A model generated the notes under the pieces. It was not told the DNA's origin and searched no databases. It worked only from the letters and a program-made list of their open reading frames with translations. DNA of 64,000 nt from Actinocatenispora rupis (lineage in GTDB: Bacteria > Actinomycetota > Actinomycetes > Mycobacteriales > Micromonosporaceae): NCBI RefSeq assembly GCF_016861975.1, contig NZ_BOMB01000023.1, positions 1 to 64,000 of the forward strand. Direction: 5' to 3'. Position 1 is the first letter of the stretch, and each line of letters opens with the position of its first letter. Positions 19,028 through 49,318 of the stretch are shown here, one piece after another. The position numbers and the translations under genes were made by a program.

Positions 19028-19100
19028 CGATTGTCCAATTGTGTCATTGTTCAATTGTTCAACAGTTGAACAATGAGACAGTTGAACAATTGAACAATCT
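19028..19100. repeat. AT-rich palindromic intergenic repeat, copy A
   Basis: About 70 bp of low-GC sequence built from ATTGTTCAA and its complement: it opens CGATTGTCCAATTGTGTCAT, then TGTTCAATTGTTCAACAG, then the inverted half GTTGAACAATGAGACAG and GTTGAACAATTGAACAATC. The two halves can fold into a long hairpin or nested hairpins. It lies between the convergent metallopeptidase and LolA-like genes. A doubled CCATGATCAA-S-TTCGC follows at 19107-19146. Copies B, C and D are at about 30.2, 40.4 and 49.0 kb. Confidence 0.85.
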
Positions 19101-19315
19101 GCGCCGCCATGATCAACTTCGCCCGCGGCGGCCATGATCAAGTTCGCGCGCGTACACCGCCCACCCCACCCCCGGACGCCGCCCACCCCACTCCCCACAC
19201 ACGGCGGCGCGCCGCCCCAGACCAGTTGGGACGGCGCGCCTCGCAGGTTCCACCGCCGCACATGCGGCACCAGATCCCGCCAGTGACGGGGCTCGTACGG
19301 CCCCGTGCCGTGGGG

Positions 19316-20455
19316 TTACTTGACCTGCCCGGCCGCCTGGTACAGGGCGGACGGGTCGACGGCGCCGGCGACGAGCCGCCCGTCGTCGGTGAGGAGTACC
19401 GAGAAGAGCTTGGTCTGGATGAGCCGGCCGGTGCCCCAGCTGCCCTTGACCTTGGGCAGCGAGTTGAGGAACTTGGTGGCGGCCGCGGCGGCCTTCTTCT
19501 GCTCGGCGGTGGTGCCGGCGGGGACGCTGGTGTCGACGCCCTTGGCGACGACGACGGTGGTCCAGCCCTTGCCGACCATCTGCGGTTCGGCGCCCTTCTT
19601 GGCCGGCGTACGGTGCGGCTTCGCGGACGGCGCGTGCGCGTCACCCTTGGCCTCGGTCACCTTGGTACCAGCGGGCGGGTTGAACGTGAACTCGGACGCG
19701 TCCGGCTTGGTGAACGCGACCTGGGTGAAGCCGGCCTCGAACGCGGGGGTGTCGGAGCCGCGCGCGTACACCTGGAGGCGGAGCGGGATGTGCTTCTCGC
19801 CGTCGACGGCGATGCGGATCTGCTGGATCCGGGACGCGTTGTCCTTCGGCGACACGACCAGCTCGTACGCCTGGCGGCCGGCGACCTTGGCGGTGCCGTC
19901 GGTGGTGACGTTCGTGGTGGGCGCGAGGCTGGTGAGCAGCTGGCCGACCCCGCCGGACAGGCTGGTCGGCATGCCGGACGGCCCGCCCTTGGGCATCACG
20001 GACGGCGGTGCGGTGTGCTGTCCGGCGGCCTTGCCGGTCAACGTACGGTGCGTCGCGGACTTGGCGGCGCTGTCGTACGTCCAGACGTTGGTGCCGTTGC
20101 GGATCAGGTCGGTCTCGCTGGTGCCGTCACCCTGGGCGGAGACGCGCACCCGGTTGGTCCCGTCGTACCAGAACTTGACGGTGTGGTTGCCGGTGACCAG
20201 CGCGTTCAGGTCGGTGCCGTTGAGCTGCGGCAGGCTCGGCAGGCCCAGGTCGGACTTCTGCACGATGGTGCCGGACAGGCTGTTGACCTTGGCCTGCGCG
20301 ACGTCCATGAGCAGCTGTTGCGGGCTGCGCTCGGGCAGGCCGCTGGACGCGTTCGCGACGATCATGCGGCCGGCGCTCCCGGCGCCGATCACGGCCACCA
20401 GCGCGGCGGCCGGGATCGCCCAGCGCAGCGCGGGTCGTGATGCGAGTGCCGACAT
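19316..20455 (-). CDS. LolA-like secreted/lipocarrier protein next to a two-component system
   Basis: A 379-residue exported protein: a hydrophobic N-terminal segment (about 11-32, AIPAAALVAVIGAGSAG) and a long beta-rich domain resembling LolA/LprG-type outer-membrane-carrier folds (FWYDGTNRVRVSAQGDGTSE, VAGRQAYELVVSPKDNASRI, RIAVDGEKHIPLRLQVYARG). The family in actinobacteria is often encoded beside an OmpR-type two-component pair, as here (divergent, 205 bp away). It may bind a lipid or act in envelope sensing; no lipobox cysteine is seen. AAGGGGG precedes the ATG. Confidence 0.75.
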   Translation of the reverse strand: MSALASRPALRWAIPAAALVAVIGAGSAGRMIVANASSGLPERSPQQLLMDVAQAKVNSLSGTIVQKSDLGLPSLPQLNGTDLNALVTGNHTVKFWYDGTNRVRVSAQGDGTSETDLIRNGTNVWTYDSAAKSATHRTLTGKAAGQHTAPPSVMPKGGPSGMPTSLSGGVGQLLTSLAPTTNVTTDGTAKVAGRQAYELVVSPKDNASRIQQIRIAVDGEKHIPLRLQVYARGSDTPAFEAGFTQVAFTKPDASEFTFNPPAGTKVTEAKGDAHAPSAKPHRTPAKKGAEPQMVGKGWTTVVVAKGVDTSVPAGTTAEQKKAAAAATKFLNSLPKVKGSWGTGRLIQTKLFSVLLTDDGRLVAGAVDPSALYQAAGQVK

Positions 20456-20594
20456 CGTTACCCCCTTCGTACCCACTGCCCCCAGTGGACTTCGATGGTC
20501 CGGTACGGCCGGATCGGCGCCCCGCCGAGCGGGAGGTCCGGCGGGCGTACTGCCCGGCCTGGTTATCAGGGTGCCCGGGGGGCCCTGTGAGCAA

Positions 20595-20620
20595 CCTGAG
20601 CCAGCCTGAGTACTTCTCAG
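20595..20620. promoter_or_regulatory. Candidate response-regulator binding site
   Basis: CCTGAG occurs at 20595 and 20605, one helical turn apart, followed by an inverted CTCAG at 20616-20620. Direct hexamers with 10-11-bp spacing are what OmpR/PhoB-type regulators bind. The site lies in the shared promoter region of the LolA-like gene and the two-component system. Binding is inferred. Confidence 0.35.
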
Positions 20621-20660
20621 CATCGGTGCGCGACGATGGCGTCGGCAAGGGAGGTGTGGG

Positions 20661-21332
<672 letters not shown>

Positions 21333-21351
21333 GCGGCCGGGAGGACGGACG

Positions 21352-22764
21352 ATGCGGTGGTGGGCGCGGCTCAGTCTGCGCGGGCGGCTGATCCTGATCG
21401 GCGTCGCGGGCCTGGCCGTCGGGCTGGGTCTCGGCGGCGGCCTGCTGGTGTACGCGTTGAACGCGACGCTCGTCCGGGCCCTGGACAGCACCGCGCTGCA
21501 GAGCGGCAACGAGGTCGCCGCGCTGGTGCGCGCGGACCGGCTGGTGGACCCGATCCCGGCCGGGCAGGGCGGCGCGGTGATCCAGGTGGTCGACGCGCGC
21601 GACCGGATCGTCGCCGCGTCCGTCGGCGCCGACCGTCTCGTCCCGGTACTGCACGGCGACGAGCTGCGCGCCGCCCGTACCGGCACCCGTGCGTACGTGC
21701 CGGGGGATCGGGCGGGGCTGCCGGGGCCGCTGCGCGTCGTCGGCGTACCGGTGGGCACCGAGACCGTACTGGTGGCCGTACCGGCGGGTGAGCTGACGCA
21801 GACGGTCCGGCTGATGCGTACGGTGCTGCTGATCGCGTACCCGCTGATCGTGGCGGGGTTGGGGGTGGTGGCCTGGCGCGCGGTCGGCTGGACGTTGCGC
21901 CCGGTGGAGTCGCTGCGCCGGGGCGCGGAGGCGATCGCCGGCTCCGGGTCGGCCGCGGCGCGCCTGCCCGTACCGACGGGGACGGACGAGGTGGCGCGGC
22001 TGGCGACCACGCTGAACGGGATGCTGGCGAAGCTGGAGGCGGGGCAGGACCGGCAGCGGGCGTTCGTCGCGGACGCCGCGCACGAGCTGCGCAGCCCGGT
22101 CGCGAGCATCCGTACGCAGCTGGAGGTGGCGCAGCGGCTGGGTGACCGGGCCGACTGGCCGGACGTCGTCGCCGACGTACTCGCGGACACCGAGCGGCTG
22201 TCCCGGCTCACCGAGGACCTGCTGCTGCTGGCGCGTACCGGGGACGCGGACGCGGCCGCCGCCCGGCTCGCCCGCCGCCGCGAACGCCTCGACCTCGACC
22301 TGCTCGTCACCGAACTCGCCGAGCGCTACGCCGACGCCCGCGTGCCGGTACGGGTGACCACGGACCGTCCGGTGTGGACGGACGGCGACCCGGAGGCGCT
22401 GGGCCGGGTCGTCGCGAACCTCGTCGACAACGCGGTACGCCACGCCACCACCGAGGTCACCCTCGCGGTGTCCACTGTGGACGGGCAGGCGTCGGTGGCG
22501 GTGTGCGACGACGGTCCGGGCATCCCCGTACCGGACCGGGAGCGGGTGTTCGACCGCTTCACCCGGCTCGACGACGCGCGGGCCCGCGACGCCGGCGGTT
22601 CCGGCCTCGGCCTCGCCATCGTCGCCGACCTCGTACGGCTGCACCACGGCACGATCACGCTCAGCGCCGCACACCACCGCGACCCGAACACCGGCGGTCG
22701 CGGCGGCCCCGGCGTACGGGCCGAGGTGCGGTTGCCCGCCGCCGACCCACCGGCGCACGACTGA
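21352..22764 (+). CDS. Sensor histidine kinase
   Basis: A 470-residue membrane kinase. Two membrane segments (about 13-36 and 155-180) enclose an external sensor of some 120 residues. Then come HAMP (GWTLRPVESLRRGAEAI), HisKA with the phospho-acceptor histidine in FVADAAHELRSPVASIRTQL, and HATPase_c (N box NLVDNAVRHA, G1 CDDGPGIPV, G2 GGSGLGLAIV). It is co-transcribed with the response regulator upstream; GGGAGGAC precedes the ATG. Confidence 0.93.
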   Translation: MRWWARLSLRGRLILIGVAGLAVGLGLGGGLLVYALNATLVRALDSTALQSGNEVAALVRADRLVDPIPAGQGGAVIQVVDARDRIVAASVGADRLVPVLHGDELRAARTGTRAYVPGDRAGLPGPLRVVGVPVGTETVLVAVPAGELTQTVRLMRTVLLIAYPLIVAGLGVVAWRAVGWTLRPVESLRRGAEAIAGSGSAAARLPVPTGTDEVARLATTLNGMLAKLEAGQDRQRAFVADAAHELRSPVASIRTQLEVAQRLGDRADWPDVVADVLADTERLSRLTEDLLLLARTGDADAAAARLARRRERLDLDLLVTELAERYADARVPVRVTTDRPVWTDGDPEALGRVVANLVDNAVRHATTEVTLAVSTVDGQASVAVCDDGPGIPVPDRERVFDRFTRLDDARARDAGGSGLGLAIVADLVRLHHGTITLSAAHHRDPNTGGRGGPGVRAEVRLPAADPPAHD

Positions 22765-22773
22765 CCGCGACGG

Positions 22774-23439
22774 TCAGGAGTGCACGAACGTGGCGCGCCA
22801 GCGTCGTACCGGGGGGTCGTCGTCGGTGTCCAGCAGGTCCTCGACCTCGACCGGCCGCAGCGGCCCGTCGGCGAACGCGTCCAGCTCGACCCGGGTCAGC
22901 GGCCACGGCATCCGGCCGGGCGGGTCCTTCTCGTCCCGGGCCCGCGCGACCACGAGCAGCGTGCCGCCCGGCGCGACCAGCTGGGCACACCGCGCGATGG
23001 CCGCCCGCCGCGCGTCCCCCTGCAACGTCTGCACCGTGTACGCCTCGAACACGAAGTCGAACGCCCCGGCCAGGTCCGCCGGCGGCGCCAGCAGATCCAC
23101 CTCCCGGTACGTCACCGCCGAGTCCGGGAACCGCTCCCGCGCCGCGCGGACCGCACTCGGCGCCACGTCGAACCCGACCGTCTCGTACCCGAGGGCGGCG
23201 AGGTGTTCGGCGTCGTCGCCGAGGCCACAGCCGACGACCGCGGCCCGCGTACCGGCGGGGCGGTGCGTGTCGAGCCAGCCGAGCAGCATCGGGTTGGCGA
23301 CCCGGTCCGCCCACGGCACGACGGCGTCGCCGCTGTTCGCCGCCGCGTACAGCCGCTCGAACCAGCCGGTGTCGTCGCCGGCAGCGACCGCCTCGGCGGC
23401 CAGGTGACGGGCGTACGCCCGCTGTTCGTCGGTCGTCAT
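22774..23439 (-). CDS. SAM-dependent methyltransferase
   Basis: A 221-residue class I methyltransferase. SAM-binding motif I reads AAVVGCGLGDDAEHL (about residues 67-81), followed by an acidic VGFDVAP strand end and YREVDLLAPP; FDFVFEAYTVQTL is motif IV. It resembles the thiopurine/thiocyanate methyltransferase-like group; substrate unknown. A TAGCTT -10 hexamer lies 7 nt before the ATG (23447-23452), so it seems to have its own leaderless promoter though it follows pheA and a phosphatase gene. Confidence 0.82.
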   Translation of the reverse strand: MTTDEQRAYARHLAAEAVAAGDDTGWFERLYAAANSGDAVVPWADRVANPMLLGWLDTHRPAGTRAAVVGCGLGDDAEHLAALGYETVGFDVAPSAVRAARERFPDSAVTYREVDLLAPPADLAGAFDFVFEAYTVQTLQGDARRAAIARCAQLVAPGGTLLVVARARDEKDPPGRMPWPLTRVELDAFADGPLRPVEVEDLLDTDDDPPVRRWRATFVHS

Positions 23440-23479
23440 GGCCGCGAAGCTACCCGAGGCCGCGGCCTCGGCCGCGCGG

Positions 23480-24082
23480 TCACCCGGGGGCGTCCCAGGA
23501 CCGCACCCGCAGCCCGTCGTCCCCGTCCGTGAGCACCGCGCGCCCCGCGTTCGGCAGCTCCGGTACGTGCGGCGACAGTCCGGTCGCCAACCGTGGCACC
23601 CCCACCACGAACAGCGTGCCGTGCCCGACGAGCACCGCCGTACCGTCCGGCGGCAGCGCGCCGAGTACGTCGGCAAGCACCGTACGCAGCCGCGCGACCA
23701 GGTCCGCGCCGCTCTCCCCACCCGGCACCCGCCCGCGCAGATCCGTACGCCAGGCCGCGAACGTCGTCGCCACCCGCCGCGCGTCCGCCGGATCCGTACT
23801 CCCATGCAGGTCGCCGATGAGCGCCTCGTGCGCCGCCTCGTGTACCCGGACCGGCAGGTCGAGCCGCTCGCCCAGTTCCGCCGCGGTCTGCCGGGCGCGC
23901 AGCATCGGCGACGACCACAGGGCCACCGGCGCCGACCCGTCCCACTCCCACGTACGCCGGAGCGCGGCGGCCTGCTCCCGCCCCCGCGCCGACAGCGGTA
24001 CGCCCGGGATGGCGCAGTTGAGCGAGCCGTCGACGTTCGCGGTGCTCTCCGCGTGTCGGACGAGGATCAGGTGTCGCGGCAC
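23480..24082 (-). CDS. Histidine phosphatase family protein
   Basis: A 200-residue phosphoglycerate-mutase-like phosphatase. The phospho-histidine motif is LILVRHAEST (H10), the second RH partner is in LVGHGTLFVV, and the SSPMLRARQTA helix is typical of the branch. Substrate cannot be told from sequence. It starts 2 nt after pheA, so it is translated from the same mRNA. Confidence 0.85.
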   Translation of the reverse strand: MPRHLILVRHAESTANVDGSLNCAIPGVPLSARGREQAAALRRTWEWDGSAPVALWSSPMLRARQTAAELGERLDLPVRVHEAAHEALIGDLHGSTDPADARRVATTFAAWRTDLRGRVPGGESGADLVARLRTVLADVLGALPPDGTAVLVGHGTLFVVGVPRLATGLSPHVPELPNAGRAVLTDGDDGLRVRSWDAPG

Positions 24083-24084
24083 GG

Positions 24085-25017
24085 TCAGTCCGGCTTACCG
24101 GCGCGGATACGGTCGAGCCAGGCGGTCGCGTCCGCGAAGTCGCGGTCGGCCATCCCGGCCGGCGGCGGTACGGGTGGTTCCCCGCCGGCCCGCGGGTACG
24201 ACCCGAAGAACTTGACGTCGGCGCAGATCCGGTGCAGCCCGGCGAGCGCCGCGCCCATCCGCTCGTCGGCCACGTGCCCCGTGCAGTCGAGGAAGAAGCA
24301 GTACCTTCCGAGCCGTTCGCCGGTCGGCCGGGACTCGATCCGCGTCATGTTGATCCCGCGTACGGCCAGCTCGGTGAGCACCGCGAGCAGCGCACCCACC
24401 TGGTCGTGCCGGATGTACACGGCGAGGGTGGTGACGTCGTTGCCGGTCGGCGGGGGCGGCGGCGCGGGCCGCGTCACCACGGCGAACCGGGTCATCGCGT
24501 CCGGGTGGTCGGCGACGCCCTCGGCCAGCAGTTCCAGCCCGTTGCGCCGGGCGGCGAGCGGCGTCGACAGCGCCGCGTCGTACTCACCGGCGGCGGTGCG
24601 GACGGCGGCGGTGGCGTTGGAGAGCACGTCGACCACGGTCGCGTCCGGCACCGTACGCCGCAGCCACTCGCGGCACTGCGCGGACGCCTGCGGGTGCGCG
24701 GCGACCGACCGTACGTCCGCCGGCGCCGTACCGGGGCGGGCGGCGAACACGAACCGGATCGGCAGCACGACCTCGCGCACGATCTGCAGCGGGCTGCCGG
24801 CGGCCAGGTCGTCGATGGTGACCGGCACGGCCCCGCCCACCGAGTTCTCCAGCGGTACGAGGGCCGCGTCGGCGTCGTTGGTCCGGACCGCGTCGAGCGC
24901 CTCCGGCACCGTACGCGCCGGCAGCAGCGCGCCGTCCGCGGCGTCCGGCAGGGTACGCAGCGCCTCCTCGCTGAACGTCCCTTCCGGCCCGAGGTAGCTG
25001 TAGCGGGTGCCCGTCAT
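24085..25017 (-). CDS. pheA: Prephenate dehydratase
   Basis: A 310-residue monofunctional enzyme converting prephenate to phenylpyruvate in phenylalanine synthesis. The catalytic domain starts YSYLGPEGTFSEEALRTLP and has PLENSVGGAVPVTIDDLAAG. The TRF motif (DAMTRFAVV) closes the catalytic part. A C-terminal ACT domain follows (TLAVYIRHDQVGALLAVLTE; INMTRIESRP), which binds phenylalanine for feedback inhibition. A TAGGCT -10 (25025-25030) sits 7 nt before the ATG: leaderless. Confidence 0.95.
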   Translation of the reverse strand: MTGTRYSYLGPEGTFSEEALRTLPDAADGALLPARTVPEALDAVRTNDADAALVPLENSVGGAVPVTIDDLAAGSPLQIVREVVLPIRFVFAARPGTAPADVRSVAAHPQASAQCREWLRRTVPDATVVDVLSNATAAVRTAAGEYDAALSTPLAARRNGLELLAEGVADHPDAMTRFAVVTRPAPPPPPTGNDVTTLAVYIRHDQVGALLAVLTELAVRGINMTRIESRPTGERLGRYCFFLDCTGHVADERMGAALAGLHRICADVKFFGSYPRAGGEPPVPPPAGMADRDFADATAWLDRIRAGKPD

Positions 25018-25243
25018 GCCACCGAGCCTATTGGTACGCCCGGCGGCGTCGTCCGGGTGCCGCCGACTCCGGCCGGCCGGCGGTATGGGCAGAAACGCGT
25101 CGCCCCGACCTGGTAGCGATGTTCATTACAGATCGTGACCGAACCCCGGATAAATCGGCGATTCCCTCCACAGAACTCGGTACGCAGAGTTGCGAGGTGT
25201 AACCAGGTCTTCTCAGTATGTGCGGCAATACCTATCGTGGACA

Positions 25244-25268
25244 GATCCGCTCAGGTACGGAGCGGATC
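25244..25268. promoter_or_regulatory. Inverted repeat ahead of the IclR-family gene
   Basis: GATCCGCTC-N7-GAGCGGATC, a perfect 9-bp dyad ending 6 nt before the GGAGG of the regulator gene. It could be an autoregulatory operator or a 5'-UTR hairpin; both are inference. Confidence 0.5.
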
Positions 25269-25285
25269 AGCAGCGGAGGTTTGTT

Positions 25286-26089
25286 GTGCGTACAGACGGC
25301 TCGCAGGCACCCTCGGACCTGATCCAAAGTGTGTCCAGAGCACTGCGGATCCTGGAGACGGTCGGCCGCTCGCAGCGCGGTCTCACCGTCAAGCAGATCG
25401 CGCGACGCTGCGAACTCGGCCTGTCCACCGCCTACCACCTGGTCCGGACCCTCACCTTCGAGGGATACCTGATCCGGTGCACCGACGGGACGTATCTGCC
25501 CGGCCTTGAGGTCGCCGACCGGTTCCGCGAGTTCAGCGCGGCCATCCGGCCACCCGACACCATCGCCGGTCTGCGACGCGCCGCCGGTACCACCGGGTAC
25601 AGCCACTATCTGGCCCGGTTCATCAACGGCAAGGTCGCCATCACCGGCGTCGCGGAGGGTCCGCGGTCGCCACACCTGGAGGACCTCGTCGTCGGCTTCG
25701 ACGACGCGGCCCACGCCACGGCGATCGGCAAGGCACTGCTGTCCACCCTCGACGTGAGCCGCCGCAAGCGGTACCTGCAGGCGGTCGGCATGCGTCCCTA
25801 CACCCGCTCCACGATCGTCGACCGCGAGCAGCTGGAGTACGACCTGGCGGGGTACAAGCGCCGCGGGGTGTACGTCGAGCGCGGTCAGTACCACGAGAAC
25901 GTGGCGTGTGCGGCGACGGTCATCTCCACCGGCAACGACCAGGGGGCCAACATGGTGCTCGCCTGCTCGATGTCGCTGGACGACTTCACCCGCAACGAAC
26001 CGACCGTGCTCACCCAGCTCTCCGGGGTGGCCCGGAGCATCGCCGCCGCGGTCTCGAACAACCCGACACCACCGGCACTGCCGCTCTAG
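25286..26089 (+). CDS. IclR-family transcriptional regulator
   Basis: A 267-residue regulator: winged helix at about 10-75 (SRALRILETVGRSQRGLTVK, LGLSTAYHLVRTLTFEGYLI) and an effector-binding GAF-like domain (HLEDLVVGFDDAAHATAIGK; RGVYVERGQYHENVACAATV). Such proteins sense small aromatic or carboxylic acids. GTG at 25286 has GGAGG 6 nt upstream. No obvious catabolic target is adjacent. A strong terminator follows. Confidence 0.87.
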   Translation: MRTDGSQAPSDLIQSVSRALRILETVGRSQRGLTVKQIARRCELGLSTAYHLVRTLTFEGYLIRCTDGTYLPGLEVADRFREFSAAIRPPDTIAGLRRAAGTTGYSHYLARFINGKVAITGVAEGPRSPHLEDLVVGFDDAAHATAIGKALLSTLDVSRRKRYLQAVGMRPYTRSTIVDREQLEYDLAGYKRRGVYVERGQYHENVACAATVISTGNDQGANMVLACSMSLDDFTRNEPTVLTQLSGVARSIAAAVSNNPTPPALPL

Positions 26090-26106
26090 TACTGGCAGAG
26101 CTTTCC

Positions 26107-26152
26107 GGCGCGGTGTCCGATTCGATCTGGACGAATCGGGCACCGCGCCTTT
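26107..26152 (+). terminator. Intrinsic terminator
   Basis: GGCGCGGTG-T-CCGATTCG pairs with CGAATCGG-G-CACCGCGCC (18 pairs with one T-G) around a 7-nt loop, followed by TTT. It lies 17 nt after the IclR stop. Confidence 0.85.
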
Positions 26153-26278
26153 GCATCACCCGTACGTGTGGTCGCTTTCTGCAAGTCGCACACGTCGTCC
26201 GTCGGCATACCGTCACGCGGTCATAACTTTCAGTTCATCGATCCCGACCCCCGGGATCGTGAAGGGGAGGTGGACCAA

Positions 26279-26716: not shown

Positions 26717-27113
26717 GCGACACACGTGTGCCGGGAGGCTGTTCCGCTGGCGTCCGAACGGCCTCCACCCTCGCGGCCCCACCCGCGCCGGGCGTACTCT
26801 TCCGCCGTCGAAACCCGGGTACGCGCGGCGCCGGTGCACATCCGCGAGGTCGGCAGCGTCTCCGCACGTCGCACCGCACGGCCCGGCGGTGCACGAGTAC
26901 TGCGGGAGACCTGCCGGACGGGCGGGGCGTACCCCACCGTTCCCCCGCGAGCTGCGGGTACGGCCCCGCCCGTCATACACCGAGCGCCACTCCGATATCG
27001 CTGCCTGCTCCCATAATGTCGGAGTTATCAACTTTCGGGATGAGATTTAGATATCTACCTACCTGAATACTGATCGCATTCCTCCCGCCGACCCCTACTG
27101 CTTGGAGGACGGA
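26717..27113. other. Intergenic region before the S53 peptidase gene
   Basis: No gene is seen. The GC-rich half holds a long hairpin (listed separately). The last 120 bp are unusually AT-rich: a CATAAT hexamer at 27012-27017 is a possible -10, and TAGATATCTA (27048-27057) is a perfect palindrome in the leader of the peptidase gene, a candidate operator. Confidence 0.5.
26920..26971. terminator. Long hairpin, possible terminator
   Basis: GGGCGGGGCGTACCC (26920-26934) pairs with GGGTACGGCCCCGCCC (26956-26971) with one bulged base. It is 200 bp from the preceding stop codon and has no U-run, so it could also belong to an unrecognised transcript. Confidence 0.45.
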
Positions 27114-28304: not shown

Positions 28305-28325
28305 ACCGGCGCCGACCGCCCCTTT

Positions 28326-28365: not shown

Positions 28366-28394
28366 GTCACGTTGACACCCCGTCGTGTTACCCA

Positions 28395-30247: not shown

Positions 30248-30320
30248 GATTGTCCAATTGTTGAACTGTCGCATTGTTCAATTGTTGAACTGTTGAACAA
30301 TGAGACAATTGAACAATCAG
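30248..30320. repeat. AT-rich palindromic intergenic repeat, copy B
   Basis: Opens CGATTGTCCAATTGTTGAAC, continues TGTCGCATTGTTCAATTG, and closes with GTTGAACAATGAGACAATTG and AACAATC. It shares the outer CGATTGTCCAATTGT and the inner AACAATGAGACA with copy A. It lies between tam and an opposing small ORF; GC is about 35% against more than 70% around it. Confidence 0.85.
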
Positions 30321-34583: not shown

Positions 34584-34589
34584 CCGCGG

Positions 34590-40347: not shown

Positions 40348-40393
40348 GATCGAGTCTTCCCGTACCGGTCAGGCTTCGGCAACCACGAGTCAC

Positions 40394-40452
40394 CTCAATT
40401 GTTCAACTGTCGCATTGTGTCATTGTTCAACAGTTGAACAATTGAACAAAAA
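40394..40452. repeat. AT-rich palindromic intergenic repeat, copy C
   Basis: Reads CCTCAATTGTTCAACTGTCG, then CATTGTGTCATTGTTCAACA, then GTTGAACAATTGAACAA. Shorter than A and B (the outer GATTGTCC arm is missing) but with the same ATTGTTCAA/TTGAACAAT build. Between the kinase start and the GDPD stop; the rest of this 205-bp gap shows no gene. Confidence 0.82.
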
Positions 40453-40552
40453 GGTGGGTCGAATCGTCGCGCAGCGAACGCGTACGGCCACCGAACGAAG
40501 CCACTGTCCGGTCTAGCGCCCCCAGCCCGTCACGAACGTCCCGCCGAGACCC

Positions 40553-41717: not shown

Positions 41718-41799
41718 GGAAGCCTCCTGACGACGGTGGTCTTCCGCTACGTATACCCCAGGGTGGGGTGCGCGGCGGTCACCCGCACCGCGACGTGTT

Positions 41800-42795
41800 T
41801 CACGCGTTGGGATTCACCAGCGTGGGGTGCGCGGCCGCCCACGCGGCGAGGTCGTCCCCGCGGATCGCGGCGAACAGGCTACGTCCGACGGAGTCGAGTA
41901 CCTCGATGGACTGGCCGTCGCTGGACGTGCCGTCGTTCTGGGGCATGCGCAGCATGGTGATGTCGGTGGTGTGGATGTACCGGAGCGAGAAGACCAGGTC
42001 GGCGAGCGGTACGCCGTTGGTGTCGACGGTGACGTCCGAGCCGATCAGCCGGATGACCTTGTCGAGCGCGACCGGGTCGCCGAGCAGCCCGGTGTCCTGC
42101 ACCTTCGCCGCCACCGCCTTGATGAGCTGCTGCTGGTGGCGCTGCCGGTCGAAGTCGCCGTGCGGCAGGTTCTCGCGCTGGCGTACGTAGTCGAGCGCCT
42201 CGGCGCCGGTGAACTGGTGGCAGCCGACGGTGAACAGCCGGCCGGTGTGGATCGAGCGGGTCTGCTCGTCGACGCACATCCGTACGCCGCCGAGCGTGTC
42301 GACGATCTTGTCGAAGCCCAGGAAGCTGACGATCGCCATGCCGTCGAGCTTCACCCCGGTCAACGACGCGACGGTACGCGCGGTCAGCGTCGGCCCGCCC
42401 CAGGCGTACGCGGCGTTGATCTTGGCGGTACAGGCGGTGCCCTGGCCGCAGTCGTCGATCCGTACCCACAGGTCACGCGGGATCGACACCAGGAACGCGT
42501 GCCGGTGGTCCGCCGTGACGTGCACCAGCATGATCGTGTCCGACCGGCCCGGCGCGCCCGTGGTGTCCGTCGGTCGCTTGTCCGACCCCAGCAGCAGGTA
42601 CGTGAACGGCCCGGACACGACGTCACCCGGCGTCGGCGTACCGGGCATCAGGTTCACCTGGTTCACCGAGTCCTCGTACCGGTGGACGAGCATCGTCGCG
42701 CCCGCGAGCGACCCGCCGCTGAGCACCATCAGTGCCGCGCCGATCCACACGAACAGCCGGGCCCACAGCGGTGACCGGCTCCGCGACCTGCGCAT
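41800..42795 (-). CDS. LytR-CpsA-Psr (LCP) family envelope ligase
   Basis: A 331-residue LCP protein. One N-terminal membrane segment (about 12-35) and an external catalytic domain: YLLLGSDKRP, GRSDTIMLVHVTADHRHAFL, VSIPRDLWVRI, KINAAYAWGG and DYVRQRENLPHGDFDRQRHQ. The conserved Arg and Asp residues that bind the polyprenyl pyrophosphate are present. LCP enzymes attach wall polysaccharides to peptidoglycan. RBS AGGAGGG. It follows a second LCP gene. Confidence 0.92.
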   Translation of the reverse strand: MRRSRSRSPLWARLFVWIGAALMVLSGGSLAGATMLVHRYEDSVNQVNLMPGTPTPGDVVSGPFTYLLLGSDKRPTDTTGAPGRSDTIMLVHVTADHRHAFLVSIPRDLWVRIDDCGQGTACTAKINAAYAWGGPTLTARTVASLTGVKLDGMAIVSFLGFDKIVDTLGGVRMCVDEQTRSIHTGRLFTVGCHQFTGAEALDYVRQRENLPHGDFDRQRHQQQLIKAVAAKVQDTGLLGDPVALDKVIRLIGSDVTVDTNGVPLADLVFSLRYIHTTDITMLRMPQNDGTSSDGQSIEVLDSVGRSLFAAIRGDDLAAWAAAHPTLVNPNA

Positions 42796-42827
42796 CCGCC
42801 CTCCTGTACGGGGATGCCCAGACACGG

Positions 42828-42863
42828 ACCACCCCGCGTACCCAGTGTCGTACGCGGGGTGGT
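42828..42863 (-). terminator. Hairpin between the two LCP genes
   Basis: ACCACCCCGCGTAC (42828-42841) pairs perfectly over 14 bp with GTACGCGGGGTGGT (42850-42863), 10 bp past the stop of the upstream LCP gene. No U-run. Confidence 0.7.
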
Positions 42864-42873
42864 GGGAGAACTC

Positions 42874-44073
42874 CTACTTCTGTGGGTTCTTCTTCACCCA
42901 GTCGGCGATCTGGTCATTGCTCATCGCCTCATACAGCGAGGACGCCTTCTCCTTGTCGGACAGCACCACGCTCTGCCCGTCCATCGTGCCGGTGCCCTGG
43001 TTGGGGCTGGTCATGAACGTGACGTCCTTGCTCCGCAGGTTGCGGAACTGGACCGCCTCGTCGACCAGGTTGAAGTCGTTGTCGACCTGGATGACCTTCA
43101 CGACCGCCTGGAGGAAGGCGTTCAGCTTCTGTGGGTTGGACAGCGTGCCGGTGCTGGCCGCCTTGTTCAGCAGCTGCTTGAGGAACTGCTGCTGGTGCTT
43201 CTGCCGCGCGAAGTCGCCCTGCGCGAACTGGTACCGCTGGCGGCAGTAGTCCAGCGCCTGGGCGCCGTTGAAGTTGTGCCAGCCCTTCGTGAACGTCCGG
43301 TACGGCGGGTGGATGGACTTGATCGTCTGGTCCACGTACATCCGGACGCCGCCGAGCGCGTCGGTGACGGACTGGAAGCCCTGGAAGTTCATGATCGCCA
43401 CGTGGTCGATCCGGACGCCGGTGAAGTTCTCCACCGTCTTGACCATGAGCGGCGCGCCGCCCCACGCGAACGCGGCGTTGACCTTCGCGTCCTGGTCGCT
43501 GGCGTCCGCACCCTTCATCGCCGGTACGTGCACCCACGTGTCACGCGGGATGGACACCACGTACGCGTGGTTGTGGTCGGCGTCGATGTGCATCAGCATG
43601 ATCGTGTCGGTACGCGGCTTCTCGCCGCTCTTCTTCCAGCTCGTCCGCATGTCGCTGCCGAGGAGCAGGATGTTCTGCGCACCGTCGACCTTCTTCGCCG
43701 GCCGGCCACCCGTCAGCCCGGCGAACGCGTCGGTGCGGTGCAGCTTGTCGTCCAGCGAGCTGGCGTACGCCCAGACGCCGACGGCGCCGATCCCGGCCAG
43801 GAGTACGAGCGCCAGCAGGGACACCAGCACGATGCGGCCCCAGCGTGGCCGACGCTTGCCCCGGTACTGGTTGTTGCCGCCGCCACCGCCCCCGCCGTAC
43901 GGCCGCCGCGGGCCGCGCGGTCCGCCGGGACCGCCACCACCCGTGCGGGGTTCACGCTCGCCGCCCAGGTACGCGCGGGGCACCGTGCCGCGGGACATGC
44001 CGGAGCGGCCCGGTGTCACACCGGAGCGGACCCGGGCCGTGCCGCGGGGATTCGGGGGATTCGAAGCCGCCAT
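42874..44073 (-). CDS. LytR-CpsA-Psr (LCP) family envelope ligase
   Basis: A 399-residue LCP protein. A cytoplasmic Gly/Arg/Pro-rich tail of about 75 residues precedes the membrane segment (GRIVLVSLLALVLLAGIGAV). The LCP domain has ILLLGSDMRTSW, RTDTIMLMHIDADHNHAYVV, SIPRDTWVHVPAMKG, KVNAAFAWGG and DYCRQRYQFAQGDFARQKHQ. The long tail is a difference from the neighbouring LCP and may allow regulation by phosphorylation. ATG at 44073 lies 7 nt after TACCCT (44081-44086). Confidence 0.92.
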   Translation of the reverse strand: MAASNPPNPRGTARVRSGVTPGRSGMSRGTVPRAYLGGEREPRTGGGGPGGPRGPRRPYGGGGGGGNNQYRGKRRPRWGRIVLVSLLALVLLAGIGAVGVWAYASSLDDKLHRTDAFAGLTGGRPAKKVDGAQNILLLGSDMRTSWKKSGEKPRTDTIMLMHIDADHNHAYVVSIPRDTWVHVPAMKGADASDQDAKVNAAFAWGGAPLMVKTVENFTGVRIDHVAIMNFQGFQSVTDALGGVRMYVDQTIKSIHPPYRTFTKGWHNFNGAQALDYCRQRYQFAQGDFARQKHQQQFLKQLLNKAASTGTLSNPQKLNAFLQAVVKVIQVDNDFNLVDEAVQFRNLRSKDVTFMTSPNQGTGTMDGQSVVLSDKEKASSLYEAMSNDQIADWVKKNPQK

Positions 44074-44422
44074 GCGCCCCAGGGTAAGGCCAACCGGCGG
44101 TACGCGAATCGCGCCACGGCGACAGTACCGACAGATCGGGCACGGCCGACGCCGTACGAGGTGCGTCCATTCCGGGAACGACCGGCGAGAACGGCACACC
44201 GGACGGGTGAGTCTGGGAGTTGACCCTGAATTCGAACGTCGCCGCCGGCGGCCGGACGCACCGCTCGCGGTGTCCCCCCCGCCCGACCGCCAATGGCGAC
44301 GACGTGTGCACGCGTCCCGGACCGGACATCCGACCCGGGATCCCCCCTCGTGCCAGTACGAACCTAACCAGCGCCCGCGGGCGTCACGCAGGGACCAAAG
44401 TCCCTATTGGCCAAGCTCACAG

Positions 44423-44953
44423 TCACGTCGGGTCGATCCGGTGGTACCGACCCCGCCGGTACGCCAGCGCCGGCTCGTCGTCGCCCAGCTCCAGGTGTTC
44501 GATCTCGCCGTCCACCCGCCGGCTCCACCCGGCCCCGGCCGTACCCGTCACGCGACAGCCCAGCCACGTACCGGCGCCGGCGGGGACCGGGCCCCAGTCG
44601 GTGTCCGTCCACGACTCCTGCGCGAACAGGCCGCCCGGCGCCGGCGCGAGCAGCCCGAACCGGTCGGCCAGCAGCCGCTGCTCCCAGCCGAGCGGCGTCA
44701 CCGCGAACCGCCCGTGCTCCTCGATCGCGTCGGCCAGGTCGCTGTCCGGGTCGAGCATCCCCACCACGACACCCGGCTCACCCGCCACCACCAGTACGGA
44801 CGCGACGGTCAGGCCGGCGCGCCCGGCGCCGCTGCCGGCGGTCCACAGGGTGACGGGGGCGGTGAGCCGACCCCGCAGCCGGCGTACCGGGTCGCGCAGC
44901 TCGGCGGGCGCGACGTACGGGTTCTCGCCGTGGATCTCGGCGCCCGCGTCCAT
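44423..44953 (-). CDS. Flavin reductase-like domain protein
   Basis: A 176-residue protein of the FMN-binding split-barrel flavin reductase family: LRGRLTAPVTLWTAGSGAGR, LTVASVLVVAGEPGVVVGML and a C-terminal barrel strand region with GCRVTGT and LAYRRGRYHRID. Activity cannot be fixed from sequence; such proteins reduce free flavin or bind F420/FMN. It starts 4 nt after the glycosylphosphotransferase gene and is thus co-transcribed. Confidence 0.75.
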   Translation of the reverse strand: MDAGAEIHGENPYVAPAELRDPVRRLRGRLTAPVTLWTAGSGAGRAGLTVASVLVVAGEPGVVVGMLDPDSDLADAIEEHGRFAVTPLGWEQRLLADRFGLLAPAPGGLFAQESWTDTDWGPVPAGAGTWLGCRVTGTAGAGWSRRVDGEIEHLELGDDEPALAYRRGRYHRIDPT

Positions 44954-44957
44954 GCCC

Positions 44958-46526
44958 TCAGTACGCCCCGCGCCGGGCGAACACCACGCCCAGCGTGCGC
45001 CACAGGATGAGCAGGTCGAACGTGAGCGACCAGTTGTCCACGTAGTACAGGTCGAGGCGGACGGCGTCGTCCCAGGACAGGTCGGACCGGCCGGACACCT
45101 GCCACAGGCCGGTGATGCCGGGCCGCACCAGCAGCCGCCGCCGTACGTCACCGAGGAAGTCGCCGTCCTCCGCCGGCAGCGGACGCGGCCCGACCAGCGA
45201 CATCTCACCCTTGAGTACGTTGATGAGCTGCGGCAGCTCGTCCAGCGACGTACGCCGGAGGAAGCGGCCGATCGGGATCACCCGCGGATCGTTACGGATC
45301 TTGAACAGCAACCCGTCGGTCTCGTTCTGGTCGACCAGGTGCGCCAGCCGCTCCTCGGCGTCCGTGTACATGGTGCGGAACTTCCACACGTGGAACTGGT
45401 CGCCCTCGCGCCCCACCCGCGGCTGCCGGAAGAACACCGGCCCCGGGTCGGACACCTTGATCATGATGGCGATCACCGCGAACAGCGGGGTCAGGACCAG
45501 CAGGCCGAGGGCCGCGGCGATCCGGTCCAGCAGGTTCTTCGCCACCCAGCCGAGGCCCGAGATGATCGGTTCCTCGACGTGCAGCAGCGGCAGACCCTCC
45601 ACCGGCCGGATGTGTACGCGGGGGCCGGCGATGTCGGTGAGCTGCGGCGCGACCACCAGGTCGATGCCGGTGCCCTCCAGCTGCCAGGCCAGCCGGCGCA
45701 GGCCGCCCTGCTCGTCGCGGGCCGTGCCACAGACCGCGATCGTGTCCGCGCCGATCTCGCGTACGACGTCGAGCAGGTCGCGGCCGGCGTGCAGCGGCAC
45801 CGGGGCGGTGACGCCGCGGGCACCGGAGCGGCCCTCGGTGAGGAAGATGCCGATCGGTACGAGCCCGGCGTTCGGGTTGCGGGTGATGGCCCGGTAGACC
45901 TCCATCGCCTCCGGCAGCGTGCCGACCAGCATGATGCGCTGCGACGCCAGCCCCCTGCGACGCGCCAGGTACAGCACGAAGCGGGCGATGGCGCGCGCGG
46001 CCAGCACGTACCCGAAGGCGCACAGCAGGGCGGTGCCCACGGCGAGCCGGGACAGGTCGTACTTGAAGGCCATGACGATGAACGACACGACGGCCACCAC
46101 GATCAGGCCGCCGCGGAACACCCGCTTGAACTCCTCGGTGCCGATCCCGAGGTAGCGCCGCTCGTACGCCCGGCTGCCCCACAGGGTGACCGACCAGCCC
46201 AGCGGCAGCAGCAGGCAGCCCCAGACGTACATGGACGGCGGGTGCTCGGTGAACCCGTCGCTGAACCCCACGTACGGATGGTCGGAGATCAGGATCGAGG
46301 TGAGGCCGGCGAGCGAGGTGAGGACGAACTCCAGCCCGGCGAGCCCGCCCGCGTACCACCGGTCCCAGCGGCCGCCGCGGCGCACCTTGGCGCGCAGCCA
46401 GGCCGAACGGGTGATGCCGTTGTTGCGGCCGTCGGGCCGCTGCTCTCCGGTCGGCGACGGGCCGCCGCCGCGCCTGCCGGTACGCCCGCGCCGGGTGGTG
46501 TCCGGACGTTCGAGGCTCGTGGTCAC
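44958..46526 (-). CDS. Polyprenyl-phosphate sugar phosphotransferase (WbaP/CpsE type)
   Basis: A 522-residue membrane enzyme that starts an exopolysaccharide by placing a sugar phosphate on undecaprenyl phosphate. Four N-terminal helices (about 50-165), a Rossmann-like domain (RIMLVGTLPEAMEVYRAI), then the catalytic domain: a re-entrant helix LLDRIAAALGLLVLTPLFAV, FRQPRVGREGDQFHVWKFRT, MYTDAEERL, RFLRRTSLDELPQLINVLKG and EMSLVGPRPLP. The KFRTM and PQL..VL.G..S.VGPRP motifs are intact. GTG at 46526 is the most likely start. Confidence 0.92.
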   Translation of the reverse strand: MTTSLERPDTTRRGRTGRRGGGPSPTGEQRPDGRNNGITRSAWLRAKVRRGGRWDRWYAGGLAGLEFVLTSLAGLTSILISDHPYVGFSDGFTEHPPSMYVWGCLLLPLGWSVTLWGSRAYERRYLGIGTEEFKRVFRGGLIVVAVVSFIVMAFKYDLSRLAVGTALLCAFGYVLAARAIARFVLYLARRRGLASQRIMLVGTLPEAMEVYRAITRNPNAGLVPIGIFLTEGRSGARGVTAPVPLHAGRDLLDVVREIGADTIAVCGTARDEQGGLRRLAWQLEGTGIDLVVAPQLTDIAGPRVHIRPVEGLPLLHVEEPIISGLGWVAKNLLDRIAAALGLLVLTPLFAVIAIMIKVSDPGPVFFRQPRVGREGDQFHVWKFRTMYTDAEERLAHLVDQNETDGLLFKIRNDPRVIPIGRFLRRTSLDELPQLINVLKGEMSLVGPRPLPAEDGDFLGDVRRRLLVRPGITGLWQVSGRSDLSWDDAVRLDLYYVDNWSLTFDLLILWRTLGVVFARRGAY

Positions 46527-46678
46527 CTCAGTCTGTCCTCCCGCGCCGCGCGCACCGTCGTATCCGGGGTCCTCAGTCTGCCACGCGCCGTCGGTCGCCC
46601 CGTGGCGGCCGAGTCGGTTGCGGGTGCGTGGCGCGCGCCGCCCGTCGGCGGTGTGCTCCTGCCCGTCCCTGCTCGTCG

Positions 46679-47536
46679 TCACTTGAGCAACTTGGACATC
46701 CGACGGTCCGCCAGCGGGCGACCGGAGGTCTGACAGGTCGGACAGTACTGGAGACTGGAGTCGCTGAACGACACCGTCCGGACAGTATCACCGCAAACCG
46801 GGCAGGGAAGCCCGGCCCGGGCGTGTACCGCCAGGCCGGACCGCTTCTCGCCCTTCAACGTCGCCGCCTTCTGCCCGACCGCGCGGGTCACCGCGGCACC
46901 GAGTACCGAGCGGGTCGCCTCGTACAGGCGGTCGACCTCCTCGTCCGACAGCTTCCCCGCGAGCGCGAACGGCGACATCTTCGCCGCGTGCAGGATCTCG
47001 TCCGAGTACGCGTTGCCGATGCCGGCGAACACCGTCTGGTCCGTGAGTACCCCCTTGACCTGGTGGCGGCGGCCGGCGAGCCGGGCGGCGAACTCGTCGC
47101 GCGACAGCTCCAGCGGATCCGGCCCCAACCGCGCGATCCCCGGTACCTGCGCCGGATCGGTCACCAGGTAGACGGCGAGCCGCTTCTGCGTACCGGCCTC
47201 GGTCAGGTCGAAACCGGACCCGTCGTCCAGGCGTACCCGGACCGCGATGGGGCCCTTGCCCGGCCTCGGCGGGGTCGACGGCAGCGAGTCGCGGTAGTGC
47301 AGCCAGCCGGCCCGGGAGAAGTGGACGACGAGGTGCAGACCCCCGTCGATGCCCACGTCCAGGAACTTCCCGTGCCGGCCGGCGCCCGTCACGGCCCGGC
47401 CGACCACCGCCGACAGCGGCGGATCGTACGTCTTCAGTGCGCTGATGGCGGCGGCGTCGGCCCGGTCGACGAGGTGACCGGCGGCGCGGTCGCTCAGATA
47501 CGCGGCCAACGCCGCTACCTCCGGCAACTCCGGCAT
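46679..47536 (-). CDS. Fpg/Nei-family DNA glycosylase
   Basis: A 285-residue base-excision enzyme. The N-terminal PELPEV holds the catalytic proline; a conserved GRHGKFLDVGIDGGLHLVVH follows. The helix-two-turn-helix reads VKGVLTDQTVFAGIGNAYSD, and a C-terminal zinc finger has CPVCG...YCPTCQ (four cysteines). Proline replaces the usual first-residue context of Nei only partly, so Fpg or Nei2 cannot be separated by eye. It removes oxidised bases. Confidence 0.9.
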   Translation of the reverse strand: MPELPEVAALAAYLSDRAAGHLVDRADAAAISALKTYDPPLSAVVGRAVTGAGRHGKFLDVGIDGGLHLVVHFSRAGWLHYRDSLPSTPPRPGKGPIAVRVRLDDGSGFDLTEAGTQKRLAVYLVTDPAQVPGIARLGPDPLELSRDEFAARLAGRRHQVKGVLTDQTVFAGIGNAYSDEILHAAKMSPFALAGKLSDEEVDRLYEATRSVLGAAVTRAVGQKAATLKGEKRSGLAVHARAGLPCPVCGDTVRTVSFSDSSLQYCPTCQTSGRPLADRRMSKLLK

Positions 47537-47639
47537 CCGTTCAGTTCAGCAGGTCCGGGCGGCGGCGTCCAACTGCCACGGCGGACCGGACCAGTACTGT
47601 GTGCGGCGACAGGTCGGAGCGAGCGGCAGGGGAACCGGG

Positions 47640-48842
47640 ATGAAGGTTGTCATCGCGCACAACCTGTACTCCTCCGCACAGCCGTCCGGGGAGAACCAGA
47701 TCGTCGAGTCCGAGTCGGCGCTGCTCGCCGACGCCGGCGTGACGGTGCTCCCACTGCTGCGCAGTTCGGACTCGATCGGGTCGTTGTCGCCGCTCGCCAA
47801 GGCCACGCTGCCGCTGTCCCCGATGTACAACGGTGGCGCGCAGCGCGAGCTGACCGAGCTGATCCGCCGCGAACGCCCCGACGTCCTGCACCTGCACAAC
47901 CCGTACCCGCTGCTGTCGCCGTGGGTGGTGCGCACCGCGCACAAGCACGGCGTACCGGTCGTGCAGACGGTGCACAACTACCGGCACGTCTGCGCCGACT
48001 CGACGTACTTCCGGGACGGGCACCCGTGTCACGACTGCCTCGGCAAGGCGTTCCCGCTCCCGGCGGTGCGGCACTCCTGCTACCGCGGGTCGCGCGCGCA
48101 GTCCGTGGTGATGGCGACGACGCTGGCCGTGCACCGTTCCACCTGGCGCACCGTCGACCGGTACATCGCGCTCGCCCCGCACATCGCCGACCACCTGCGC
48201 ACGTTCGGGATCACCGACGCGCAGGTCGCGATCAAACCCAACGGCATCCCCGATCCCGGCCGCCACGACGAGACCGGCGACGGCTTCCTGTACTTCGGGC
48301 GCCTGGTCGACGCGAAAGGTGTCGGGCTGCTCCTCGACGCCTGGGAACGGCACGCGGACGGCGAGTTCGGCACCCTGCGCATCGCCGGCGACGGGCCGCT
48401 CCGCGGTCGGGTCGAGGCCGTCGCCGCCGCCCGCGCCGACGTGGAGTACCTGGGGCTCGTGGACCACGCGGAGATCCCCGGGGTGATCCGCGCCGCGTCC
48501 GTCGTCGTCGTCCCCTCCACGTACGCCGACGCGCTGCCCACCGTGATCCTGGAGGCGTTCGCCAACGGGCGCCCGGTGCTCGGCACCGCCGTCGGCGGCA
48601 CACCGTACCTGCTGGGTCTCGACGAGGGGCACGATCCGGCCGAGACGCCGCCCGGGTGGGTCGTGCCGCCGGAGCCCGGCGCGCTGGCCGAGACGTTCGG
48701 GCTGGCGAAGCTGCGCGCCGACACCCTCGGGCCGCTCGCCCGCCGCCGGTACGAGACGGTCTTCGCGCCGGATGTGTTGCTGCGCCGCCTGATCGGCGTG
48801 TACGAGGAGCTCGCCGCAGACGCCCGCGCCGCCACCACCTGA
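47640..48842 (+). CDS. Family 4 glycosyltransferase
   Basis: A 400-residue GT-B enzyme. N-domain: MKVVIAHNLYSSAQPSGENQ, PDVLHLHNPYPLLSPWVV, a cysteine-rich loop (YRHVCADSTYFRDGHPCHDC) seen in actinobacterial members. C-domain: FLYFGRLVDAKGVGLLLDAW (GT4 entry), VVVVPSTYADALPTVILEAF with the E-x7-E motif, and AVGGTPYLL. It retains configuration when adding a sugar from a nucleotide donor. Beside the priming transferase and LCP genes, wall or capsule glycan assembly is likely. Confidence 0.9.
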   Translation: MKVVIAHNLYSSAQPSGENQIVESESALLADAGVTVLPLLRSSDSIGSLSPLAKATLPLSPMYNGGAQRELTELIRRERPDVLHLHNPYPLLSPWVVRTAHKHGVPVVQTVHNYRHVCADSTYFRDGHPCHDCLGKAFPLPAVRHSCYRGSRAQSVVMATTLAVHRSTWRTVDRYIALAPHIADHLRTFGITDAQVAIKPNGIPDPGRHDETGDGFLYFGRLVDAKGVGLLLDAWERHADGEFGTLRIAGDGPLRGRVEAVAAARADVEYLGLVDHAEIPGVIRAASVVVVPSTYADALPTVILEAFANGRPVLGTAVGGTPYLLGLDEGHDPAETPPGWVVPPEPGALAETFGLAKLRADTLGPLARRRYETVFAPDVLLRRLIGVYEELAADARAATT

Positions 48843-49318
48843 CCCGCCCAGCGGCCCGGTGGTCGACCGTGGTCCGCGCCGGGCCGGAGACCTGACCGCC
48901 GCACGGGCGGGTGGCGTTGATGTCGGACGGGCGGTCCGCTGGTCGGTGTCGTCGGTGCACTTTCTTGTTCCATTGTTGAACAAGACGATCTTGTCCAATT
49001 GTTCAACAATGGGACAGTTGAACAATTGGACATCCACCAAGATCAACTTCCGGAGCGGCGACCACGGTGGCGCGAACGTTGGTCCGGGCGGGCGCGAAAC
49101 GCGGCTCGGGAACGGCACGAAACCGCGGCCGGAGACCGGCGCGAGAGGCGGCCCTGGCCGGGCGCGAAACGCGCGGAAGTACGATGCGGAAGGCGCGAAA
49201 ATCCCGGGCGCGAAACGCGCGAAAACCCTTGGGGCCGAAGGGGATCCGCCCGACCGGAGAGTGTCCGCAATCACGCTGTCGTACGGGGCCGGCGGTCGCT
49301 AGATTCTCCTCGTACTCG
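48843..49318. other. Repeat-rich intergenic region
   Basis: No gene seen. Contains repeat copy D (48964-49033) and, after it, three copies of CGGGCGCGAAACGCG (49089-49103, 49159-49173, 49205-49219), each of which can form a CGCG-AAA-CGCG mini-hairpin. Unspaced variants (GGCGCGAAAATC, GCGCGAAAACC) lie between. Confidence 0.65.
48964..49033. repeat. AT-rich palindromic intergenic repeat, copy D
   Basis: Reads CTTGTTCCATTGTTGAACAA, then GACGATCTTGTCCAATTGTT, CAACAATGGGACAGTTGAAC and AATTGGACATCC. It keeps TTGTCCAATTGTT and AACAAT-GRGACA of copies A and B. It is followed by AAGATCAACTTC, which also flanks copy A. Confidence 0.82.

What the first reader, a model, noticed from the sequence alone, without database searches (positions are those of the whole stretch)
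19028..49033. A family of AT-rich palindromic repeats (at least four copies) scattered in intergenic DNA
Seen directly: elements of about 55-75 bp at 19028-19100, 30248-30320, 40394-40452 and 48964-49033 share CGATTGTCCAATTGT, ATTGTTCAA, GTTGAACAATTGAACAAT and GAGACA/GGGACA words, and each reads as two or more complementary halves. They are about 35% GC in DNA of more than 70% GC. All are between genes, in different gene orders (two between convergent genes, one upstream of a kinase, one downstream of a glycosyltransferase). Copies A and D also share a flank with GATCAACTTC. Not explained by coding. They could be REP/BIME-like elements moved by a RAYT transposase, or protein-binding or RNA-hairpin elements.
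Basis: partly seen in the sequence, partly recalled or inferred. Interest (0 to 1): 0.75.

Follow-up and report, generated by a model that had tools for sequence, protein, structure and literature searches.

The report
Palindromic repeats built from 8-letter modules
One actinobacterial genome carries at least 75 scattered copies of a hairpin-forming DNA repeat assembled from interchangeable 8-letter blocks, a few of them inserted in frame inside protein genes, and the family was not found in its nearest relatives.

Summary
A-D are four of at least 75 copies in this 7.83-Mb genome. Each follows one rule: GAT-(TGT+5 nt)n-TGT-NNN-ACA-(5 nt+ACA)m-ATC, an array of 8-bp modules that switches orientation near its middle. 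Of 58 elements with both end anchors, 56 have lengths of 5 mod 8.

The arms complement each other beyond the rule itself, and the TGT/ACA steps vary less than the 5-nt words. Copies are dispersed: near-identical cores sit in unrelated flanks, and orthologous site B is empty in three of three congeners. Three elements lie in frame inside genes whose homologues lack the peptide.

The family is species-limited: 57 places here, against one place in each of three genomes among about 740 family and class relatives. The REP/RAYT reading fails: no Y1_Tnp gene, no GTAG/CGTC tag. No target duplication and no RNA-strand preference were detected. Best reading: a non-autonomous, hairpin-forming mobile element that works like REPs and Rickettsia palindromic elements, with an unusual 8-bp modular build and an unidentified mobiliser. 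A TGT-8 hairpin in another family of the order may be a distant relative.

The parts
19029..19099 (.). Element A: GAT + 3 left modules + TGTTCAACA + 4 right modules + ATC; TGT...ACA core 19032-19096
   Evidence: core 64/65 identical to L069 with unrelated flanks
19107..19119 (+). Companion flank motif CCATGATCAACTT of element A
30248..30318 (.). Element B: L5R2, core 30251-30315; the orthologous site lacks it in 3 of 3 congeners
40397..40451 (.). Element C: L3R2, core 40400-40448
48965..49034 (.). Element D: L1R3 core 48992-49032 plus an extra half-array TTGTTCCATTGTTGAACAA at 48965-48983
49037..49049 (+). Companion flank motif CCAAGATCAACTT of element D

Best explanation
The repeats are copies of a non-autonomous, hairpin-forming interspersed element that spread in this species' lineage. 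Each is a palindrome built from 8-bp modules (TGT+5 nt on one arm, 5 nt+ACA on the other) meeting at TGTNNNACA. Shown: dispersal to unrelated sites, absence from the relatives searched, in-frame presence in genes whose homologues lack it, the modular rule, complementary arms, no RNA-strand preference, no Y1_Tnp match in the 96.8%-complete genome. Inferred: copies are made at the DNA level by an enzyme acting in trans that recognises the hairpin or the regularly spaced TGT/ACA steps; module number changes by slippage in steps of 8; the two arms are kept matched by template switching within the hairpin; most copies settle between genes and a few survive in frame inside genes.
For: Copy number: 61 loci read (A-D plus 57) and 14 more located (fetched), 75 in all. 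Grammar: 68 of 75 parse strictly over at least 33 nt; 56 of 58 anchored elements have lengths of 5 mod 8, from 29 to 85 nt. Dispersal: A and L069 64/65 identical; L087/L109 and L072/L078 share ungapped segments of 82 and 84 nt (about 94-95% identical by their scores), including asymmetric ends, then unrelated flanks. In-frame copies: L070, L088 and L098 encode 25, 25 and 31 aa, and homologues have gaps there. Site B is empty in 3 of 3 congeners. Species-limited: grammar pattern 57 places here, one place in 1 of 353 other family genomes and in 2 of 393 others of a class sample; model R1 finds none in 36 other family genomes (stricter filters). Hairpin: energy 3.15 +- 0.53 kcal/mol lower than with modules permuted within the element and 3.40 +- 0.62 lower than with modules drawn from the pool, 61 elements; class-B words match across arms in 17 of 42 against 6.8 expected, p=1e-4. 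DNA level: sense strand better in 9 of 18.
Against: No mobiliser was identified, and flanking direct repeats do not exceed a shuffled control. Pair counting in a fixed register is weak: 85.5% of cells paired against 84.4% in shuffles (61/500 reach it), 9 pairs with changes on both sides against 6.8 (18/500), covariation score 0.152 against 0.131 (35/500); slid registers give 29-45% paired (33 of 39 eligible sequences). Elements were found with an 18-mer seed and a model built from them, so conserved TGT/ACA is partly ascertained. Copying by gene conversion or segmental duplication is not excluded; L186 and L234 are alike also in the short flanks printed. In L070 the homologue gaps do not coincide exactly with the element.
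Confidence: 0.62

Rival explanations
1. True REPs moved by a RAYT (TnpA_REP) that was lost or lies in an assembly gap.
For: Short, mostly intergenic, palindromic, mosaic with other motifs; more often between convergent (17) than divergent (7) genes, no genome-wide baseline computed. Two of three congeners carry a Y1_Tnp gene. Completeness is 96.8%, so a gene could be missing.
Against: PF01797 has no match in the genome. GTAG near 1 of 122 ends (far control 2), CGTC near 8 of 122 (far control 23). No TGT-8 array in the 3.3-kb stretches around the Y1_Tnp genes of congeners G001 and G002. No 8-bp build in the REP passages read.
Confidence: 0.12
2. Arrays of 8-bp binding sites for a DNA-binding protein (partition, nucleoid or regulator), placed by selection rather than mobility.
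For: Between related copies, substitutions hit TGT/ACA at 174 of 5839 sites and words at 1178 of 7765 (284 non-independent pairs, TGT-aware parser). Regular 8-bp step and inward-facing orientation. Contigs C23 and C28 are denser than Poisson (P=1e-4 and 1e-3, not corrected for 81 contigs).
Against: Near-identical copies with shared asymmetric ends in unrelated loci. In-frame copies inside monooxygenase and regulator genes. Not found in three congeners.
Confidence: 0.13
3. A MITE of a DDE-type insertion sequence, mobilised through its terminal repeats.
For: Ends often read (C)GATTGT...ACAATC(G); some ends add ATCGATAG and CCAAGATCAAC.
Against: Outer ends of well-matched copies are asymmetric (L087/L109, L072/L078); no target duplication above control. 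No partner IS was seen, but the whole genome was not scanned for one.
Confidence: 0.1
4. RNA elements: bidirectional terminators or mRNA stabilisers.
For: Of 42 loci with both neighbours called, 17 lie between convergent genes, 18 codirectional, 7 divergent (19 of 61 unresolved). Many RNA folds of -20 to -40 kcal/mol.
Against: Sense strand better folded in 9 of 18; no Rfam match in the window and three loci; in-frame copies in genes; species limitation.
Confidence: 0.05

Closest known systems
REP / BIME elements with RAYT transposases
   Same: Short palindromes, many copies, mostly intergenic, mosaic with other motifs, species-specific families
   Different: No Y1_Tnp match in the genome, no GTAG/CGTC tag, longer, built from 8-bp modules in variable number
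Rickettsia palindromic elements (RPE)
   Same: Palindromic selfish repeats also found inside genes (PMC3733652, passages; that RPEs lie in frame is recalled)
   Different: RPE sequences end in CGTC in the passages read, these do not; no sequence comparison made; no 8-bp module rule known to me
MITEs
   Same: Small, non-autonomous, inverted-repeat, dispersed
   Different: Asymmetric outer ends, no target duplication detected, no parent IS seen
BOX elements of Streptococcus pneumoniae (recalled)
   Same: Modular interspersed repeat with variable module number
   Different: Modules far longer; not an 8-bp bidirectional array (recalled)
TGT-8 hairpins of genus g38 (G040, G091), another family of the same order
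   Same: Arm TGTCCGATTGTNNCNTTGTTG with TGT every 8 bp, hairpin; weak R1 hits in G040 at two places, E=0.001 and 0.009; G040 also has 91 copies of CCAAGATCAACTT with up to 1 mismatch
   Different: Conventional hairpin with a longer loop and one main sequence, not a word-exchanging array; the pattern TGTCYRAYTGTNNCNTTGTTG has no match in the window's genome

Membership tests
REP/RAYT | RAYT or other Y1 transposase gene in the genome | tested here: not met
   PF01797: 0 matches in G000; found in 8 of 40 relatives and 5 of 14 controls; genome 96.8% complete
REP/RAYT | GTAG or CGTC tetranucleotide at one end | tested here: not met
   within 14 nt of 122 ends (61 loci): GTAG 1, CGTC 8; far controls 2 and 23
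REP/RAYT | Many palindromic copies, mostly extragenic | tested here: met
   75 copies, 5 of them inside coding-like frames; 19 of 61 loci had a neighbour that the gene caller could not place
Rickettsia palindromic elements | In-frame copies inside protein genes, absent from homologues | tested here: met
   3 of 3 genes aligned to homologues show gaps at the element (in L070 the edges do not match exactly); L229 consistent; L233 not aligned
Rickettsia palindromic elements | CGTC tag or sequence relation to known RPE families | tested here: not met
   CGTC tag absent; no sequence comparison with RPEs made
MITE | Target-site duplication | tested here: not met
   flanking direct repeats no more frequent than with shuffled flanks, 61 loci
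MITE | Parent transposon with the same ends | not tested

The most novel reading that the evidence does not exclude
A new class of bacterial mobile palindrome whose copies are assembled from exchangeable 8-bp modules with fixed TGT/ACA steps, changing length only in steps of 8, keeping its arms complementary, and moved by an enzyme that is not a RAYT.
Probability: 0.35. Interest if true: 0.75.

Novelty: new variant of a known kind. Interest (0 to 1): 0.6.

Why it matters
Well-known bacterial palindromic repeats are tied to RAYTs or to insertion sequences (established knowledge, partly PMC3733652). In this family neither is visible, there is a strict 8-bp construction rule, and it is young enough to catch copies in unrelated sites and in frame inside genes. 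It gives a clean system for asking how short palindromes are copied, lengthened and kept symmetrical, and whether a protein reads the 8-bp steps.

Tried and rejected
RAYT origin: no PF01797 match in the genome. Conserved promoter: orthologous site B is empty in three congeners, and neither a triple TGT-8 array nor any of four TTGNNCAA words tested occurs in the 14 congener stretches read. Nested transposon ends (TGT + 5-bp duplication): words on the two arms are inverted, not direct, copies. Composite elements: six intervals of 3.3-5.2 kb between neighbouring copies hold ordinary-looking genes, judged by eye from translations; no family search was run on them. RNA function: no strand preference, no Rfam match in the window and three loci. 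Alignment of sites C and D with congeners was uninformative because the flanking DNA does not align well; site A was not aligned. Fixed-register covariation was weak and is told against my reading. In one search the backward control pattern itself keeps TGT every 8 bp and rings almost as often (own genome 121+116 against 88+95; G040 12 against 11; G091 17 against 15), so it is not a clean control; I lean instead on the counts in other genomes and, where the control is 0 in this genome.

Literature: (open PMC subset) gave capped lists (20 of 57, 15 of 317, 12 of 12, 10 of 74, 10 of 2,101, 6 of 6 papers); none of the listed titles or abstract starts describes such a family. I read passages of PMC12306157 and PMC3733652, and nothing more of any paper.

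Dropped rows: 6 of 39 windows with at least two modules per arm were left out of alignment A1 because a TGT/ACA step was changed; model R1 and rest on the other 33, whose TGT/ACA columns are therefore invariant by choice. Searches used 61 loci at most, not the 14 found later.

Full report
What is there. A repeat search already showed copies in register at spacings of 8. Searching the whole genome (7.83 Mb, 81 contigs, window = contig 23) with one shared 18-mer at up to 2 mismatches gave 113 matches and none for the reversed pattern (the list of places was capped). I read 57 further loci and, with A-D, parsed 61.

The rule. Elements read GAT-(TGT+5 nt)L-TGT-NNN-ACA-(5 nt+ACA)R-ATC, with L and R from 0 to 8 in the tolerant parse. 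Words are drawn from a small set: class A (TCAAC, TCAAT, CCAAT and kin) and class B (CTCAT, GTCAT, CGCAT, GCACT, TGACT, CGCCT and others); most arms carry one or no class-B word. A covariance model built from 33 windows gave 136 matches on both strands at E<=0.01, which I counted by hand as 70 places (66 on both strands, 4 on one), 14 of them new; with the 61 that makes 75 elements. This is a lower bound, as 150 of 897 candidates were scored. Of the 75, 68 parse strictly over at least 33 nt; 58 have both end anchors, and 56 of these have lengths of 5 mod 8, spread from 29 to 85 nt. Lengths therefore change in whole modules.

Structure. For 61 elements the RNA-parameter folding energy is 3.15 +- 0.53 kcal/mol lower than for the same modules permuted within the element, and 3.40 +- 0.62 lower than for modules drawn from the pool. 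Class-B words are present on both arms in 42 of 75 elements and match as reverse complements in 17, against 6.8 expected (p=1e-4; with the first 61 loci 13 of 32 against 5.1). Six different words match, so this is not one subfamily alone, although copies are related. Against this, pair counting in a fixed central register is little above shuffles, I think because the dyad of the hairpin does not always coincide with the switch point of the modules. In 18 elements between codirectional genes the sense strand is the better folder in 9, mean difference 0.45 +- 0.79 kcal/mol, so I see no sign of RNA-level selection. Between related copies, substitutions fall at 3.0% of TGT/ACA positions and 15.2% of word positions (284 non-independent pairs, TGT-aware parser).

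Dispersal. A and L069 differ at one of 65 positions and have unrelated flanks. L087/L109 share 82 nt and L072/L078 84 nt, including outer motifs such as CGGTCCGACCRATTAT, ATCGATT and ATCGATAGGCGNACCAAGATCAT, and then diverge. Outer motifs recur: CAAGATCA in 17 and ATCGATAG in 14 of 122 flanks, 0 in the next 80 nt. No target duplication exceeds a control with shuffled flanks. At site B the three congeners lack the element and its surroundings; the exact empty site is blurred by divergence. Of 42 loci with both neighbours called, 17 are convergent, 18 codirectional, 7 divergent; 19 of 61 were unresolved and no genome baseline was computed. Contigs 23 and 28 are enriched (12 and 7 copies).

In-frame copies. 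Three elements are embedded in open, GC3-rich reading frames: L070 (GAF-domain protein), L088 (FAD monooxygenase, PF01494) and L098 (no Pfam family). They encode 25, 25 and 31 residues. For L088 the five PDB alignments shown match residues 1 to 144-149 and 171-180 to 333, with 1-10 chain residues in between; 3ihg_A, not shown, was aligned in one stretch with 13 fewer residues overall. Homologues translated from large replicons in the plasmid collection show gaps too: L098 against Nonomuraea one gap of 31 at the element, L088 against Streptomyces 21 and 2, L070 against Embleya and Nonomuraea 28 and 26 in two pieces that reach past the element. L229 (VioD-like) and L233 also lie in open frames; for L229 the best homologue has 22 residues where the query has 100, some of it low-complexity. 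L233 was not aligned. So 3, probably 5, of 75 are intragenic and in frame.

Distribution. The 18-mer at up to 1 mismatch is in 0 of 60 relatives. The general grammar pattern has 57 places here, one place in 1 of 353 other family genomes and one place each in 2 of 393 others of a class sample; its backward control is 0 here. R1 finds nothing in the other 36 family genomes searched and weak hits in G040 (two places) and G039 (one), both in other families of the order (stricter filters). An exact search of the named species collection gave 28 stretches, none titled as an actinobacterium (the window's own genome may be left out there). The taxon is unnamed; from genome counts I guess Micromonosporaceae (recall, no call).

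A possible cousin. The looser TGT-8 pattern rang 12 and 17 times in G040 and G091, one genus of another family (backward control 11 and 15, see Tried and rejected; congeners 0-1). I read all 12 G040 places and 11 of 17 in G091: by eye 10 of 12 and 4 of 8 loci hold a hairpin with arms like TGTCCGATTGTCACCTTGTTGACC and a longer loop. The tighter pattern is found in these two of 397 genomes of the order and not in the window's genome. G040 also has 91 copies of CCAAGATCAACTT at up to 1 mismatch, against 14 here and 0-17 in the other 39 genomes, often inside larger mosaics (20 stretches read). AAGATCAACTTC also reads as common codons, so low counts elsewhere may be coding. Common descent is possible, not shown.

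Comparison. PMC3733652 (passages) describes REPs as short palindromes tagged by GTAG or CGTC and linked to RAYTs. This genome has no PF01797 match and the ends bear no tag, so membership fails, while the behaviour is REP-like. The in-frame copies resemble Rickettsia palindromic elements. None of the papers listed (open subset, capped lists) describes an 8-bp modular rule, judging by titles and abstract starts.

Verdict. A real, species-limited family of hairpin-forming mobile repeats with an unusual modular build; the mobiliser is unknown. New variant of a known kind; interest 0.6.

Noticed in passing
L070, L088, L098, L229, L233: Elements lie in frame inside genes and add peptides such as VEQLNNALVEQ; by eye, left-arm modules of the common words have no stop codon in any frame (no call).
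   Followed up: partly
L188-L207 (G040): A genome of another family has large intergenic mosaics joining CCAAGATCAACTT, a GTGGGTTCGCG/GGGTGGGGG palindrome and an ATGCACGCAAGGGGGCC palindrome, several as inverted pairs about 160-200 bp apart.
   Followed up: partly
flanks of the 61 loci: Other short motifs recur next to the elements: ATCGATAGG, ATAATCGGTCGTACCG, ATCGATTTGTGACC, GTCCACAGTGGAC; the ATCGATTTGTG flank goes with the GCACT word in four loci (L081, L083, L088, L089).
   Followed up: partly
L186 and L234: Two elements alike in the short flanks printed too (CTTTTTGGACAT...GTGGCCGAGCGTAATCG), perhaps a larger duplicated unit.
   Followed up: no
window 60597-60743: Tandem 36-nt repeat, in what may be coding DNA.
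   Followed up: no
window 7955-8067: Two 43-nt direct repeats, 91% identical, starts 70 nt apart, ending in CACACCATG.
   Followed up: no
window 26988-27104 and 56350-56445: Other AT-rich stretches; by eye they lack the 8-bp grammar (56409 has one TTGTTCAA).
   Followed up: no
G077:C6:356446-356520 and G035:C35:6213-6279: 8-bp tandem arrays with other words (TGTTGGGC; TGTGGTGC/TGTGGCGC).
   Followed up: no
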